Source: a virus
Virus record (IMG/VR): IMGVR_UViG_3300006033_000062
Span: 1 to 36,994 of that record
Reading direction: 5' to 3' (one strand)
DNA length: 36,994 nucleotides
In this document: positions 45 through 7,085 of the stretch, in pieces
How positions within the stretch are numbered: the first letter of the stretch is position 1
Layout of the letters: the number at the start of each line of letters is the position of its first letter
Program-made: the position numbers and the translations under genes
The notes under the pieces: generated by a model
Seen by the model: the letters and a program-made list of their open reading frames with translations, nothing else
Database searches by the model: none
What the model was told of the DNA's origin: nothing

Positions 45-120
<76 letters not shown>

Positions 121-386: not shown

Positions 387-1157
387 CTAGGGATGCGCCT
401 TTGACTGCTTTTTTTGTCGCAGTGCCTTTGCGCGCTTCAATTCTTCAGCCTTCTCAGGCAGCTCGTACAACTGCTCCAGCGTATGTTCGACGATCTCAAT
501 CGCAAGCCGAAGTTCATCTGTTGATGGGCGCGCAAGTTGGTGCACCGCGTCATTGCCAAGGTATCGGTGTTCGTGAAGGGTGTCTGAGCTCGTTTGGGTA
601 AGCAGTCCCTTTTCTTGGAGACCTGAAATTCGGCCTCGGAGGTCATCTTTCCTTACGATTTTTTTGCTGCCGTCCTTCAAGGTTTGCTCTACAGGGCCAT
701 CCAGGACACCTCGCTCGGCACAAATTCCTTCGACAATTGCTCTGAGACCAGCAGCGCAGAGAGTTGGACTGTCGTTGTTAAAGCAGTCAATTAGCTCACT
801 GTAAATCCTCCGTAGATTGGAGGGCACGTTGTAGTACGGCTTCGTCGGGAGAGTCTCCAGTCCTCGTTTGGGGTAAAGCCGTTCTGTCTCGCCGCTCTCA
901 CCCGACATCGGATCAGCGTCTTCCGAAAACCAACTTGTGTGGCGGAATGAAATCGATTCGCACCCACCGCACTGGATGACCTGATAGTGATCAACCCAGT
1001 TGACGCTCCACTCTTCGCCCTGGTCGTATGCCTCCCCATCCACATCAATCGAGGCTAGAACTTGGTGCTTCGTTGCACCGTTGCACTTGACGCATGGCAC
1101 GGAAAATTTTTCCGACTTGGTCTTGTTTTCAGTTTGTTTGACATCTGTTTTTGACAT
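387..1157 (-). CDS. Zinc-ribbon DUF4145 domain protein
   Basis: This 256-aa protein has a predicted zinc ribbon (C22/C25 and C63/C66). The C-terminal half, about residues 115-235, reads as a helical DUF4145 domain with the typical 'CAAGLRAIVEGIC' and 'HEHRYLGNDAVH' stretches. DUF4145 is common in restriction and anti-phage loci and is fused to restriction enzyme subunits in some families; its biochemistry is not settled. It is the last gene of the minus-strand operon, starting 32 nt after the stop of the QueC-like gene. ATG at 1157 is the only sensible start and its ribosome-binding site is weak. The gene is visibly more AT-rich than the phage genes, which fits acquisition by transfer. A role as accessory or effector of the QueC-like protein is inferred from position only. 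Confidence 0.8.
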   Translation of the reverse strand: MSKTDVKQTENKTKSEKFSVPCVKCNGATKHQVLASIDVDGEAYDQGEEWSVNWVDHYQVIQCGGCESISFRHTSWFSEDADPMSGESGETERLYPKRGLETLPTKPYYNVPSNLRRIYSELIDCFNNDSPTLCAAGLRAIVEGICAERGVLDGPVEQTLKDGSKKIVRKDDLRGRISGLQEKGLLTQTSSDTLHEHRYLGNDAVHQLARPSTDELRLAIEIVEHTLEQLYELPEKAEELKRAKALRQKKQSKAHP

Positions 1158-1189: not shown

Positions 1190-3310
1190 TTAATCGTTTG
1201 CGATGGGACGAACTTCCCAGGTGACAGCGATCTCCGGTCGGTACACTGCTTCATTGCCGTGCTTGATGGAGTCCTTCAGGTGCTGGGCCAGCGGCTTGTC
1301 GTACTTGTCGATCTGCTTGATGGCCCGGTCGACGGCGTTGCGGAACGCGTCGCGGACGTTTTTTCTCCTGTCGGCGACCTTGCGCAGCTTGCCTCCCTTA
1401 CCTTGGGCTCCTGTCACTGCCGCCACGAGTTGGGCCATTTCGATCTGGATTTCCTCGAGGCGCTCATGGTCTCCGTCTGCCTCGGCATCTGCCTTTTCGC
1501 TGACCAGTTCGTTGAACCTGCCACGGTACTGCTGGATCGCCTTTCTGTCGGCCACCACGCCAGCATCACCCAGCGGCACCCCGACAGAGACTTGATACCC
1601 CTCTTCGATGTCGTCGTGATCCAGTCCGGTGTTCGCAGCGGACTCAATGATCCCGATTTCGCTCCCGCAAACGACCTCAAAAACCGAGGTCTCTCGGGCG
1701 GGATGTGCAAGCAACAGGTTGATGTACTCGGCCCCTTTGTCCACGCCCTGGATCAGGATGGGGTGTCGCCCACGCCCTTGGAAACGTGCCTCCCAGACGT
1801 TGCCGCGCTTTCGGAAGATGTTGTCCGGCATCTTTTCTGCCGACGCGACGGCGGGTACCGAGATCACAGAACCTGACTCGTAGACCGTCCGAAGCAGGCA
1901 GTCACCCGGGAGCGTGCGTTCCCGAATCGCGGTGATGTTCCGTGAAACCAACTCATCAAGGGCCCCGGTCACCTCGGTGGCGTGCCGCTTGTACAGGTCG
2001 AACACGCGTTGCGCCGCCTGAGCTGTGCTGCCGTCGAGGTACCGAAAAACCCGACTCACCTCGGCGTAACTGCTGATGAACTGGGTCACATCGGTCAGCG
2101 ACTTCACCTGATTGGCCCGTTCGAGGTAGGCCGCTGCCATGATCTTGTCGTCGCCCTTGTTGCGACTCTGAGTAAAAACGTCGACCTTGTAGTGGTCAGC
2201 AGGGTCGTACTGGTCGGCCTTTGCCGCGACCACGGCAAACCGGCGGTCGATGCACTGCGAGCAGCCGCCGCAATGGGTGTGCTGGTTCGTCATCTCCCAG
2301 GTGTGGGTGCAGGTCATCGAGTGCGCGATCAGATCGGCGCATCCAGCCTTGGTGATGACCTCGACGACATCTGCCTTGGTCTTCCAGATGAACGGGTTCT
2401 CGATGGTGAAGGGCTCGCCCGCCACCAGGGAGATGATCTCTTGGAAGCCCTTCATGACCTTGGGGTGCGTCGTTCGCGTGGCGCGGCCACCGGCGACTTG
2501 GGCGCACACCGGCAGATTCAGGCTGATGACCCCGTTTTCGTAGAAGCGCACGCTCTTGAGGCCGAGCATCTTGGCGATGGTCGCGCCAATCGACATGTAC
2601 AGGAAAGATCGGCTGCGCTGGGTGTACTCGTGGTTCAGCCCTTTGGTCTTGTGGACACGGACGCTGATGTGGTGTGGCGCGTTGTCCCCGGCCTTCGCCG
2701 CCAGCAGCGTTTCCATATTTCGGTGGCGGTTGTTCAGTTTCGGTGTCGACTTGTGCGTCACCAGCACCACCCTGCGCTTCTGCGTCAGGATTTCCTCAAT
2801 CGCGCCACCCAGGGAGTCCAGGCCACCGGAGAACATCACCACCTGCTCGGGACGCCCGAATAACTGTAGGGTGTCGTTGAATTCGAGGTATTCCTGGATC
2901 GTGTGATCTTGATCCATCTGGACGAAGTCGAACTGGTAGTTGTCGTCGGACAAGAAGCCCAAGGTCGACCGCAACGTCGCAAGGACATTCGCCGAGCGCC
3001 AGAAATCGAGGTTGCGAACCGGCACCACGAAGTGAAGGTCGCGCCGCCAGCCGTCGCCGAAGTTGTCGACATCGTCCGCACCGCGCTTGATGGCCTGATC
3101 GGCGCTGTAGACGTAGGTGGCAATCTCCAACAGATCGTGAAACTGGGTCGGGACGCTTCGAACCATCTTGCTGTGGATGTCCTCGATGCGCAGCGTGATA
3201 TTGCCTTGCCCTTCCTTACCAGAAAGCCGAAGCCGCAGGTCGCGTTTGGGATCGTCGCTGATGCCTTTGGCCGAAGCGTTGCCACAAATGATGTACCGCT
3301 TATCTTGCAT
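1190..3310 (-). CDS. QueC-like PP-loop ATPase with N- and C-terminal extensions
   Basis: The centre of this 706-aa protein is QueC-like. A PP-loop SGGLDS (161-166) binds ATP in the family. A four-Cys zinc site (C334, C347, C350, C353; HCGGCSQC) is followed by R356, as in 7-cyano-7-deazaguanine synthase. True QueC has about 220-240 residues, so about 150 N-terminal and 340 C-terminal residues are extra. The last 210 residues look like a recurrent C-terminal module of bacterial regulators and ATPases: a small W-x-x-R-F/LL-P-A-R-E unit (about 505-545), a charged coiled coil (585-635) and a basic tail ending H-L-K-D-S-I...Y-R-P. No other queuosine genes are nearby, so tRNA modification is unlikely. 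QatC and CBASS Cap9 are QueC relatives used in phage defence. The start has GGGAG 9 nt upstream and overlaps the preceding gene by 11 nt. Confidence 0.85.
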   Translation of the reverse strand: MQDKRYIICGNASAKGISDDPKRDLRLRLSGKEGQGNITLRIEDIHSKMVRSVPTQFHDLLEIATYVYSADQAIKRGADDVDNFGDGWRRDLHFVVPVRNLDFWRSANVLATLRSTLGFLSDDNYQFDFVQMDQDHTIQEYLEFNDTLQLFGRPEQVVMFSGGLDSLGGAIEEILTQKRRVVLVTHKSTPKLNNRHRNMETLLAAKAGDNAPHHISVRVHKTKGLNHEYTQRSRSFLYMSIGATIAKMLGLKSVRFYENGVISLNLPVCAQVAGGRATRTTHPKVMKGFQEIISLVAGEPFTIENPFIWKTKADVVEVITKAGCADLIAHSMTCTHTWEMTNQHTHCGGCSQCIDRRFAVVAAKADQYDPADHYKVDVFTQSRNKGDDKIMAAAYLERANQVKSLTDVTQFISSYAEVSRVFRYLDGSTAQAAQRVFDLYKRHATEVTGALDELVSRNITAIRERTLPGDCLLRTVYESGSVISVPAVASAEKMPDNIFRKRGNVWEARFQGRGRHPILIQGVDKGAEYINLLLAHPARETSVFEVVCGSEIGIIESAANTGLDHDDIEEGYQVSVGVPLGDAGVVADRKAIQQYRGRFNELVSEKADAEADGDHERLEEIQIEMAQLVAAVTGAQGKGGKLRKVADRRKNVRDAFRNAVDRAIKQIDKYDKPLAQHLKDSIKHGNEAVYRPEIAVTWEVRPIAND

Positions 3311-4088
3311 CGCTGCGCGCTCCCGCCTTCAGTTCATCTGTCATCTTCTTCAGCGCGTAGCCTGCGAATCCATCAGACGATTTTCTTGAAATGACCCCGC
3401 TTTCCTCGAAGCGGTGCTTGGAAAACCAACCAGCGGAAAACGTCTCCACGATCAATGACGCTTCCCGGGTGTGGGTCGTCAACGCGGAATCAAATTGCGC
3501 CTTTTGATTCATCGTCGCAAAGCGCATCCCCTCGCCGAGATTGGTATTCAGGTTTTTGCTCAGGAAATACTGCAGGCTCTCGTTGGCCAGTCGGGCAAAG
3601 AAACTCCGCGAGAGCTCCCCGAACTCCTTTTGCTTGCCCAAGGTCGAAAGTGCAGCCCGCATCGTGTCCGGGTCGGATGGAAACAGGGTGTGCAGCTTGG
3701 GGGATAAAGCATCGGCCACCGCCCCGACCAGGGCACGTCCCGCCAGCTCGCCAAGGTCTGATCTTTTGCCTGAAGCGTCCGTGGCTCGATCAAGTGCCTC
3801 TGAAATGGACGTCGTCACATCAGTCAGGGTGGCATCACTGGGCAACGAGATGCCCACGGAGTCGAGGTGGGCCAGGATGTCTGTCTTCTTGGCCGCAATA
3901 GCAAGCTGCGTCATCAGCCAGACGGCCTCCGTGTACCCGATGTCGTTCATGACAAAGGAGAAGGCGTTCTCGGCAGCGGTGATGGTGGCATTGGCCACTT
4001 GGGAAACGTCGGCTCCGGCGGCAATCAAGCCGACCACTTCCTTCCACGCTTTCGACCTTGGCAGCAGTCCAAGTCGAACATGACCCAT
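3300..4088 (-). CDS. Met-Gly N-terminus protein paired with the QueC-like enzyme
   Basis: I do not recognise a family for this 262-aa, mostly helical, soluble-looking protein. It has no signal peptide, membrane segment or cysteine cluster. It begins MGHVRLGLLPRSKAW, a compact basic N-terminus in which methionine removal should expose Gly2. The start at 4088 is well supported: GGGGGAG lies a few bases upstream and no earlier in-frame start is plausible. The 3' end overlaps the QueC-like gene by 11 nt, so the two are translationally coupled and probably work together. In Qat systems the gene next to QueC-like qatC is qatB, of unknown fold, and in type IV CBASS the QueC-like enzyme modifies the N-terminal glycine of its partner. 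By analogy this protein may be the substrate of its neighbour; that is inference from position and the Met-Gly start. Confidence 0.7.
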   Translation of the reverse strand: MGHVRLGLLPRSKAWKEVVGLIAAGADVSQVANATITAAENAFSFVMNDIGYTEAVWLMTQLAIAAKKTDILAHLDSVGISLPSDATLTDVTTSISEALDRATDASGKRSDLGELAGRALVGAVADALSPKLHTLFPSDPDTMRAALSTLGKQKEFGELSRSFFARLANESLQYFLSKNLNTNLGEGMRFATMNQKAQFDSALTTHTREASLIVETFSAGWFSKHRFEESGVISRKSSDGFAGYALKKMTDELKAGARSDAR

Positions 4089-4126
4089 GCAGACTCCCCC
4101 TTGCCTATGGCATTAACTCGCTGCCA

Positions 4127-5074: not shown

Positions 5075-5263
5075 ATGATCGTCGAACAAACACTCCCTGA
5101 CTTGATGTCGCCACGCCAAAGAGCGCGCGAAGCCGCAGAAATTATCGCGGCCGCCATCGCGCGATTGCATTCAACTCTGCCCCGAGAAAGCGATATTTCA
5201 CTTGGCTTCTCGGCACCCAAGCGCGTTCATACAAACCCGTCTACAGAAGGAGTTTGCAAATGA
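5075..5263 (+). CDS. Small protein upstream of DUF2924 gene
   Basis: A 62-aa ORF whose stop TGA (5261-5263) overlaps the ATG of the DUF2924 gene. Its 'RAREAAEIIAAAIARL' helix resembles short proteins often found just before DUF2924/recombinase pairs, which suggests a real gene of the integration module. Function is unknown. ATG 5075 and ATG 5105 are both possible starts, neither with a strong ribosome-binding site. The 97 nt between this ORF and the thermonuclease start are a divergent promoter region without a clear consensus. Confidence 0.6.
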   Translation: MIVEQTLPDLMSPRQRAREAAEIIAAAIARLHSTLPRESDISLGFSAPKRVHTNPSTEGVCK

Positions 5264-5721
5264 ATGTATCGACAGTCGCCCCATCCCTGGCGGCGCAAAT
5301 TACCAATTTGCCCAAGTTGGCAATGAATGATTTATGGGCGCTGTGGGACAAGTATTTCCCGCGTCGCCCCCCTCATAACAACCGGGCTTATGTCGAAGGC
5401 CGCGTCGCCTACAAGATCCAGGAAGAAGCATTTGGTACCAAGCTGGTCGTCCAGACCCAGATGGCCCGGATCGGCGAAGCGCAATCTCGGATCAAGACCC
5501 AGCGCGGAGTCGAAGTCCAGGTCGTACCCGGCACGGTACTGGTGCGCGAATTCGACCGCCGCGAGCACCGCGTCACTGCGCAGGCCGACGGCACCTTTGA
5601 ATACGAGGGTCGCCGCTACAAGAGCCTGTCTGCCGTGGCACGCCACATCACGGGCACTCAGTGGTCGGGGCCACTGTTTTTCGGAATCACCAAGAACAAG
5701 CCGAAGCGAGGTGATAAATGA
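5260..5721 (+). CDS. DUF2924 domain protein
   Basis: This 153-aa protein matches the DUF2924 pattern: an N-terminal 'MNDLWALWDKYFPRRPPHNNR' segment, then 'LVREFDRREHRVTAQADGTFEYEGRRYKSLSAVARHITG', a small beta-rich unit expected to bind DNA. DUF2924 genes almost always directly precede a phage serine recombinase, and a partner or directionality role has been assumed from that. The start is ATG 5260, 8 nt after AGGAG; an upstream in-frame TTG is not needed. It overlaps the previous stop (ATGA) and the next start by 4 nt. Confidence 0.88.
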   Translation: MNVSTVAPSLAAQITNLPKLAMNDLWALWDKYFPRRPPHNNRAYVEGRVAYKIQEEAFGTKLVVQTQMARIGEAQSRIKTQRGVEVQVVPGTVLVREFDRREHRVTAQADGTFEYEGRRYKSLSAVARHITGTQWSGPLFFGITKNKPKRGDK

Positions 5722-7085
5722 ACGCCGTCGTGACCAAAAAACGCTGTGCCGTCTACACCCGCGTCTCAACCGACGAGCGCCTCGACCAGTCCTTCAACTC
5801 CCTCGATGCCCAGCGCGAGGCGGGCCAAGCCTACATCGTCAGTCAGCGCGCCGAGGGCTGGTTGCCGGTGGGCGACGACTACGACGACGGCGGCTACTCG
5901 GGCGGCAATACGGAACGCCCAGCTTTGAAACGCCTGATGGCCGACATCATTGCCGACCAGATCGACATCGTGGTGGTCTACAAAATTGACCGCCTGACGC
6001 GCAGCCTGACCGATTTTTCCAAGCTGGTGGAGGTGTTCGAGCGGCACAAGGTGTCGTTCGTATCGGTGACCCAGCAGTTCAATACCACCACGTCGATGGG
6101 GCGGCTGATGCTCAACATCCTGCTGTCTTTCGCCCAGTTCGAGCGGGAGGTTACTGGCGAGCGTATCCGCGACAAGATCGCCGCCAGCAAGCGCAAGGGC
6201 CTGTGGATGGGTGGCTACACGCCGCTGGGCTATGAGGCGAAGGATCGAAAGCTGGTCATCGAGGAAAAAGATGCGGAAACCATCCGGCGGATTTTCACGC
6301 GCTTCACGGAGATCCAGTCCATTACCGAGATCGTCCGGGAGATGTCGCTGGAGGGCATCACGACCAAGCCCAACCGCCTGAAGGACGGCCGCGTGCGCAA
6401 CGGCACGCCAATGGACAAAAAGTACCTCTCCAAGCTACTGCGCAACCCCATCTACATTGGCGAGATACGCCACAAGGACACGGTTTTCGCAGGTCAGCAC
6501 GAACCGATCATCACTCGCCAGCTTTGGGATCGGGTGCAAGCCATCCTCGCCGAGGACGCTCACCAGCGCATGGGCAAAACCCAGACCCGGCACAAGACCG
6601 ATGCACTGTTGCGTGGCCTGATGTACGGCCCCGATGGCGGCAAGTACCACATCACCTACAGCAAGAAGCCGTCGGGCAAGAAGTACCGGTACTACATCCC
6701 CAAGGCGGATAACCGGTATGGCTATCGCAGCAGCGCCACCGGGATGATTCCGGCCGACCAGATCGAGGAAGTGGTGGTGAACCTGCTGGTGGGGGCGCTC
6801 CAGTCGCCCGAAAGCATCCAGGGGGTCTGGAACACGGTGCGCAGCCAATACCCGGAGATCGACGAACCGACCACCGTGCTGGCGATGCGTCGCCTCGGCG
6901 ATGTCTGGAAGCAACTGTTTCCTGCCGAGCAGGTGCGATTGGTCGCCCTGTTGATCGAACGCGTCCAGCTTCTCTCCGACGGCGTCGATATCGTCTGGCG
7001 CGAATCCGGCTGGCGAGATTTGGCCGGTGAACTGAGCCCGGGCAGCATCGGCGGCGAGATGCAGGAAATGGAGGTGGTGTCGTGA
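5718..7085 (+). CDS. Large serine recombinase (phage integrase)
   Basis: This 455-aa protein carries the resolvase/invertase catalytic domain at residues 9-150: Y13, R15 and nucleophile S17 in 'YTRVSTDE', then 'VVYKIDRLTRS' and 'FEREVTGERIRDKI'. A recombinase domain follows at about 165-270 ('GYTPLGYEAKDR...ITTKPNRLKDGR...LLRNPIYIGEIRH'), then a C-terminal region. It should catalyse site-specific integration and excision through a 5'-phosphoserine link. The segment that is a Cys4 zinc ribbon in many large serine recombinases is present in outline ('LLRGLMYGPDGG...YRYYIPKA') but has no cysteine, as is usual in the DUF2924-associated branch. ATGA overlaps link it to both neighbours. Confidence 0.95.
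   Translation: MNAVVTKKRCAVYTRVSTDERLDQSFNSLDAQREAGQAYIVSQRAEGWLPVGDDYDDGGYSGGNTERPALKRLMADIIADQIDIVVVYKIDRLTRSLTDFSKLVEVFERHKVSFVSVTQQFNTTTSMGRLMLNILLSFAQFEREVTGERIRDKIAASKRKGLWMGGYTPLGYEAKDRKLVIEEKDAETIRRIFTRFTEIQSITEIVREMSLEGITTKPNRLKDGRVRNGTPMDKKYLSKLLRNPIYIGEIRHKDTVFAGQHEPIITRQLWDRVQAILAEDAHQRMGKTQTRHKTDALLRGLMYGPDGGKYHITYSKKPSGKKYRYYIPKADNRYGYRSSATGMIPADQIEEVVVNLLVGALQSPESIQGVWNTVRSQYPEIDEPTTVLAMRRLGDVWKQLFPAEQVRLVALLIERVQLLSDGVDIVWRESGWRDLAGELSPGSIGGEMQEMEVVS

What the first reader, a model, noticed from the sequence alone, without database searches (positions are those of the whole stretch)
3300..4088. Met-Gly partner may be N-terminally modified by the QueC-like enzyme
In type IV CBASS a QueC-like enzyme (Cap9) is reported, as I recall, to attach a deazaguanine amide to the N-terminal glycine of its partner. 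Here the gene overlapping the QueC-like gene encodes a protein starting MGHVRLG, with the start fixed by a strong ribosome-binding site. Gly2 would be exposed after methionine removal.
Basis: inference. Interest (0 to 1): 0.65.

Follow-up and report, generated by a model that had tools for sequence, protein, structure and literature searches.

The report
Two-gene prophage Qat variant, Gly2 invariant
A bacterial virus carries two overlapping genes related to the core of a known anti-phage system (Qat), and the partner protein's second residue, glycine, never changes in 43 divergent versions, which fits but does not prove that the enzyme attaches something to that end of the partner.

Summary
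The partner (3300-4088, -) starts ATG-Gly-His behind GGGGGAG, with no possible upstream start, and overlaps the enzyme (1190-3310, -) by 11 nt. Homologues were fetched with the enzyme, so the search did not select for the partner's N-terminus. All 43 clusters below 80% identity have Gly2, with all four Gly codons in use; 42 have His3; positions 4-14 vary.

The Cap9 analogy needs correcting. The enzyme is QatC-like: best solved structure QatC, active site RTTHP with Thr/Thr instead of the Cap9/QueC Tyr/Asp. The partner is a probable remote QatB homologue (HHalign 91%) with a tail of about 14 residues and motif MGH instead of MGTS. QatA and QatD are absent from all 125 related loci searched, but present in 14/14 canonical ones. 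The window is a prophage with the module beside its attachment site.

Published work shows QatB Gly2 is essential and QatBC alone can defend, but QatC's reaction is unresolved. Here Gly2 is probably the substrate end. That the added group is a deazaguanine is unproven: one host with an intact module lacks detectable QueD, QueE and QueC. Verdict: new variant of a known kind.

The parts
3300..4088 (-). Partner gene, 262 aa, MGHVRLGLLPRSKAW...; probable remote QatB homologue and putative substrate of the enzyme
   Evidence: no Pfam, NCBIfam, PADLOC, PHROGs or PDB match; HHalign to 15 QatB sequences 91% probability, E 1.1e-6, reversed decoy 1.1%, column shuffles at most 0.3%; AF2 model pLDDT 82, pTM 0.83, all-helical
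4080..4088 (-). Codons Met1-Gly2-His3; Gly2 would become N-terminal after methionine removal
   Evidence: Gly2 in 61/61 aligned homologues and 43/43 clusters, His3 in 42/43
4094..4100 (-). Ribosome-binding site GGGGGAG
   Evidence: Read directly from the sequence
1190..3310 (-). QatC-like enzyme, 706 aa
   Evidence: NCBIfam QatC 213 bits (cut-off 280), PADLOC QatC 186 bits, PDB QatC 9vlk E 1.7e-29; model matches QatC 9y01_B at E 1.5e-17
2813..2830 (-). SGGLDS pyrophosphate-binding loop, residues 161-166
   Evidence: S, G, G, D and S in 42/42 homologues
2462..2485 (-). RATRTTHP, residues 276-283: substrate-pocket segment with QatC-type Thr278/Thr280
   Evidence: T278 T/S, T280 41/42, HP 42/42; aligned with Pa QatC T278/T280 (PMC13279940)
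2252..2311 (-). Zinc-site cysteines C334, C347, C350, C353
   Evidence: 42/42
1190..1945 (-). Extra C-terminal region of about 250 aa that canonical QatC lacks; function unknown, variable in distant homologues
   Evidence: Alignment A7; predicted fold partly confident; 69-aa C-terminal query without a plasmid match
4127..4360 (-). Small LexA-type winged-helix gene, probable regulator of the operon
   Evidence: Pfam LexA_DNA_bind E 2.7e-12; same-strand homologue 37-68 bp upstream of the partner in 30 of 66 genome loci
45..120 (+). tRNA-Ala(CGC) at the window edge, inferred attachment site next to the module
5254..7085 (+). DUF2924 protein and serine recombinase (integrase) on the far side of the cargo region
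   Evidence: Pfam; relatives in 34 of 55 genome loci with at least 5 kb upstream

Best explanation
The two overlapping genes form a minimal Qat-like module, in effect QatB plus QatC without QatA and QatD, carried as cargo by a temperate phage. Methionine aminopeptidase exposes Gly2 of the QatB-like partner (established rule for small second residues). The short flexible tail Gly-His-x-Arg then enters the active site of the bound QatC-like enzyme, which uses ATP to activate an acid and joins it to the glycine amine. The modified partner serves, directly or as a sensor, in defence of the lysogen against other phages. Shown here: the gene pair, Gly2/His3 invariance, an intact QatC-type active site, no QatA/QatD nearby, prophage context. 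Inferred: the physical complex, the modification, its chemistry and the defence role.
For: Enzyme homology to QatC along its full length with all catalytic and zinc residues kept in 42/42 homologues. Partner remotely homologous to QatB (supported in separate subsets). Gly2 invariant in 43 clusters using four synonymous codons, at residues that the AF2 model leaves least ordered (2-5, pLDDT below 50). The pair is kept together over many phyla. Canonical QatB has Met-Gly-Thr-Ser at the same place in all 15 sequences examined. Literature: QatBC alone defends against lambda vir, QatB G2D and QatC active-site mutants abolish defence, and the QatB tail lies in the QatC active site in E. coli structures (PMC13279940).
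Against: No complex was modelled and no modification is shown. The whole stretch 1-15, not Gly2 alone, is well conserved (H3, W15), so binding without chemistry would also fit. Foldseek finds no match to QatB although QatB-QatC entry 9y01 is in the library, and the best block-shuffled decoy reached 59% (score 38.2 against 51.1 for the real profile). The tail is far shorter than QatB's 30-90 residues. Defence function was not tested.
Confidence: 0.6

Rival explanations
1. The chemistry is exactly that of Cap9: 7-carboxy-7-deazaguanine (CDG) made by the host is joined as an amide to Gly2, giving the NDG modification.
For: Same enzyme superfamily and same acceptor residue; 19 of 21 hosts examined encode a QueD-family protein.
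Against: The nucleobase-reading Tyr/Asp pair is replaced by Thr/Thr as in QatC. Tepidicella xavieri (L036), with both genes intact, has no detectable QueD, QueE or canonical QueC, and two other hosts (L020, L077) have no QueE by three models. Draft genomes, salvage or a silent module could explain this.
Confidence: 0.3
2. The N-terminus is a docking or plugging element that binds in the enzyme pocket and regulates it, with the enzyme acting on another substrate; Gly2 is conserved for fit and is not modified.
For: Conservation extends over G2, H3, R5, P10 and W15, which looks like a binding motif; the QatC reaction is unresolved.
Against: Gly2 lies exactly where Met removal would expose it and is never replaced even by Ala or Ser, while Arg5, Leu6, Gly7 and Pro10 are; Cap9 precedent with the same layout.
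Confidence: 0.22
3. The locus is an ordinary qatABCD system that existing profiles merely recognise poorly.
For: QatC models match well above noise.
Against: QatC score 213 against a curated cut-off of 280; no partner scored matches a QatB model, although QatB controls do; no QatA or QatD in 125 loci against 14/14 controls; MGH instead of MGTS; about 250 extra enzyme residues.
Confidence: 0.05
4. Gly2 conservation reflects recent common descent or a constraint on the DNA around the start codon, with no protein-level meaning.
For: All copies share ancestry, and close relatives share nearly the whole N-terminus.
Against: Pairwise identities fall to 20%, all four Gly codons are used, and neighbouring codons vary freely.
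Confidence: 0.05

Closest known systems
Qat anti-phage system (qatABCD), core pair QatB-QatC
   Same: QatC-type enzyme with N- and C-terminal extensions, Thr-x-Thr pocket and zinc cysteines; overlapping partner gene directly upstream; invariant Gly2; remote QatB profile similarity
   Different: No QatA or QatD; motif MGH instead of MGTS; tail about 14 residues instead of 30-90; about 250 extra C-terminal residues on most enzymes; carried in prophages beside a serine recombinase and often preceded by a LexA-type HTH gene
Type IV CBASS Cap9 with its CD-NTase (NDG modification)
   Same: QueC-family enzyme paired with a protein that begins Met-Gly; exposed N-terminal glycine
   Different: Partner is not a CD-NTase; Cap9 is about 185 aa and keeps Tyr/Asp; Foldseek to Cap9 much weaker (E 3.6e-4) than to QatC (E 1.5e-17)
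QueC (PF06508), preQ0 synthase
   Same: Rossmann-type core, SGGxDS and zinc motif
   Different: YPDC and related substrate motifs absent; large extensions; encoded with a partner protein and not with queD/queE

Membership tests
Qat (qatABCD) | QatC-type QueC homologue with SGGxDS, zinc cysteines and Thr-x-Thr pocket | tested here: met
Qat (qatABCD) | Enzyme passes the curated QatC equivalog cut-off (280 bits) | tested here: not met
   213.3 bits for P0002
Qat (qatABCD) | Partner matches a QatB family model | tested here: not met
   No match for P0001 or seven homologues, while two QatB controls match
Qat (qatABCD) | Partner is homologous to QatB at profile level | tested here: inconclusive
   HHalign 91%, E 1.1e-6 with clean reversed and shuffled decoys, but block shuffles up to 59% and no Foldseek match
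Qat (qatABCD) | QatA (KAP ATPase) and QatD (TatD nuclease) in the operon | tested here: not met
   0 of 125 loci against 14 of 14 canonical loci
Qat (qatABCD) | Partner N-terminal glycine | tested here: met
Qat (qatABCD) | MGTS motif and a long (30-90 aa) disordered tail | tested here: not met
   MGH motif; first helix starts at residue 15
Type IV CBASS (Cap9) | CD-NTase partner | tested here: not met
   No Pfam family in the partner
Type IV CBASS (Cap9) | Tyr/Asp deazaguanine-reading residues | tested here: not met
   Thr278/Thr280 instead
Type IV CBASS (Cap9) | Cap10 (TGT-like) gene alongside | not tested
   Not searched specifically; no such cluster stood out among neighbours
N-terminal NDG modification | Covalent 7-amido-7-deazaguanine on Gly2 | not testable with these tools
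   Needs mass spectrometry

The most novel reading that the evidence does not exclude
A widespread, phage-carried, two-gene Qat relative in which the enzyme attaches a group other than a deazaguanine to the glycine of an MGH-type partner, so that N-terminal glycine conjugation by QueC-family enzymes is a general strategy with more than one chemistry and partner fold.
Probability: 0.3. Interest if true: 0.8.

Novelty: new variant of a known kind. Interest (0 to 1): 0.62.

Why it matters
The open question for Qat is what QatC does to QatB (PMC13279940). These natural pairs have a much shorter tail, no QatA or QatD, and a different but equally invariant Met-Gly motif. They offer a simpler system for reading out the adduct by mass, and they suggest that the N-terminal glycine, not the MGTS sequence or the long tail, is the shared feature. 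Hosts without the CDG pathway provide a direct test of whether the donor is a deazaguanine. The pairs also suggest that phages spread QatBC-like modules between phyla.

Tried and rejected
Family searches of the partner in Pfam, NCBIfam, PADLOC and PHROGs and phmmer against the PDB: no match. Foldseek of the partner model against PDB and viral structures: nothing below E 0.1. Profile comparison with the Rhizobiaceae partners (MSDGPHK...): no homology (0.2%), despite a look-alike N-terminus. DUF4145 neighbour as a third component: rejected, found in 0 of 73 genome loci and 3 of 40 viral loci. Plasmid search with the enzyme's C-terminal 69 residues (the query as typed had one wrong residue, S for G at position 2): no match. 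Relatives of the window genome could not be drawn because it is a virus record. A paper search for Qat in prophages found nothing relevant.

Full report
Observation. The partner gene lies at 3300-4088 on the - strand and encodes MGHVRLGLLPRSKAW... (262 aa). Its ATG is the first start codon of the frame, GGGGGAG sits 5 nt upstream, and its end overlaps the next gene by 11 nt. That gene (1190-3310, -) encodes a 706-aa QueC-family protein (Pfam QueC E 2.2e-9). The description is correct.

What the enzyme is. It matches QatC, not Cap9: NCBIfam QatC 213 bits (below the curated 280), PADLOC QatC 186 bits, PDB QatC 9vlk E 1.7e-29. The AlphaFold2 model (pLDDT 80) matches QatC 9y01_B at E 1.5e-17 and Cap9 9nto_B only at 3.6e-4. 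Alignment with five QatC sequences covers the whole of QatC; about 250 further residues follow. SGGxDS, the zinc cysteines and HP are present in 42/42 homologues, with T278 as Thr or Ser, T280 in 41/42 and R279 in 42/42. In P. aeruginosa QatC these threonines replace the Tyr/Asp of Cap9 and QueC and are essential (PMC13279940).

To avoid selecting for the partner's N-terminus I searched genomes with the enzyme alignment (78 loci kept, from Proteobacteria, Desulfobacterota, Planctomycetota, Verrucomicrobiota, Bacteroidota and others) and read the gene upstream. All 68 intact partners begin ATG-Gly, 67 with His3 and one with Asn. Five loci gave none: three have damaged partners and two run off the contig. 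With viral loci there are 43 clusters below 80% identity: ATG-Gly in 43, His3 in 42, Gly written with all four codons. Weighted frequencies show Gly2 100% and His3 98%, while positions 4, 8, 11 and 14 vary widely; Gly2 ranks 12th and His3 4th of 283 alignment columns in conservation. A Leptospira plasmid homologue, 22% identical by tblastn, keeps MGHERLGILPKTRSW.

What the partner is. No family model matches it, and seven homologues scored together with two QatB controls gave no QatB match either, while the controls did. The AlphaFold2 model is all-helical (pLDDT 82, pTM 0.83), with residues 2-5 the least confident and the first helix at 15. Foldseek finds no match, although the QatB-QatC entry 9y01 is in the library. 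HHalign against 15 QatB sequences gives 91%, E 1.1e-6, colinear over 150 columns outside the tail; a reversed profile gives 1.1% and column shuffles at most 0.3%. Separate subsets give 40-91%; block-shuffled profiles reach 59% with lower scores. I read this as probable, not certain, remote homology to QatB.

Context. QatA and QatD homologues occur in 14 of 14 canonical loci and in none of 125 loci of this kind (some of the 125 are overlapping fetches of the same contig). A LexA-type HTH gene lies 37-68 bp upstream on the same strand in 30 of 66 genome loci, so the operon is probably HTH-partner-enzyme. The window encodes a serine recombinase, DUF2924, D5 primase, terminase gpA and tape measure protein, so it is a prophage or temperate phage. 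The module lies between a tRNA-Ala(CGC) at 45-120 and the recombinase. In relatives the same end abuts tRNA-Ala or tmRNA, which share the 3' end. In 34 of 55 genome loci with enough flank the recombinase or DUF2924 is also present.

Chemistry. In type IV CBASS, Cap9 conjugates CDG to the N-terminal glycine of the CD-NTase. In Qat, QatB Gly2Asp and QatC active-site mutants abolish defence and QatBC alone suffices against lambda vir, but the reaction is unresolved; another group proposes carboxydeazaguanylation (PMC13329287). That group finds qatA in only 34% of QatC-cluster neighbourhoods, which leaves room for pairs like this one. I asked whether hosts can make CDG. Of 21 hosts, Tepidicella xavieri (L036) has no QueD, QueE or canonical QueC, and two more have no QueE, although TGT is present. 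This weighs against CDG as an obligatory donor, weakly, because the genomes are drafts and salvage is possible.

Wider pattern. A Bradyrhizobium QatC-like pair has a partner starting MGSGSFGGG and an SGGLDS enzyme. In contrast four Rhizobiaceae plasmids pair an enzyme with SDGLDS and no TRTTHP with a partner starting MSDGPHK. Gly2 thus goes with the intact active site in the families seen, but four related plasmids are too few for a test.

Conclusion. The prediction that Gly2 is invariant is confirmed and the case for N-terminal targeting is good. The identity of the adduct, and whether there is one, is not shown. The module is a new variant of the Qat kind, not a member of qatABCD as defined and not a CBASS system.

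Noticed in passing
window 45-120; L022, L012, L030, L034, L023 near 8370: The element end next to the module abuts tRNA-Ala(CGC) or tmRNA, which share the same 3' end (GTTCGA...CTCCACCA), so the element seems to use either as attachment site.
   Followed up: partly
L092, L177, L178, L179: Rhizobiaceae plasmid family: QatC-like enzyme with SDGLDS in place of SGGxDS and no TRTTHP, partner starting MSDGPHKSLP, followed by an XRE-type gene. Possible natural case of changed or lost chemistry.
   Followed up: partly
L094, L180: Bradyrhizobium/Mesorhizobium family: QatC-like enzyme with RHAHP, followed by an ASCH-domain gene; the L094 partner starts MGSGSFGGG (glycine-rich), the L180 start is uncertain.
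   Followed up: partly
L014, L043, L054: Partner gene deleted or rearranged next to the enzyme gene (full length in L014 and L054, 419 aa in L043).
   Followed up: partly
L175: Homologue reads CTG-Gly-His where others have ATG-Gly-His, with GGGAGG upstream; possible CTG start, or a GTG start giving Met-Gly-Gly.
   Followed up: no
window 387-1157 (-): DUF4145 protein with Cys pairs near its N-terminus, found beside the module in only a few close viral relatives.
   Followed up: partly
window 1190-1945 (-): The extra C-terminal region of the enzyme has no family match and differs among distant homologues (for example L078).
   Followed up: no
Viral-contig scan: The MGH-type pairs outnumber canonical QatBC pairs among the viral contigs found, although the query was canonical QatC.
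   Followed up: no
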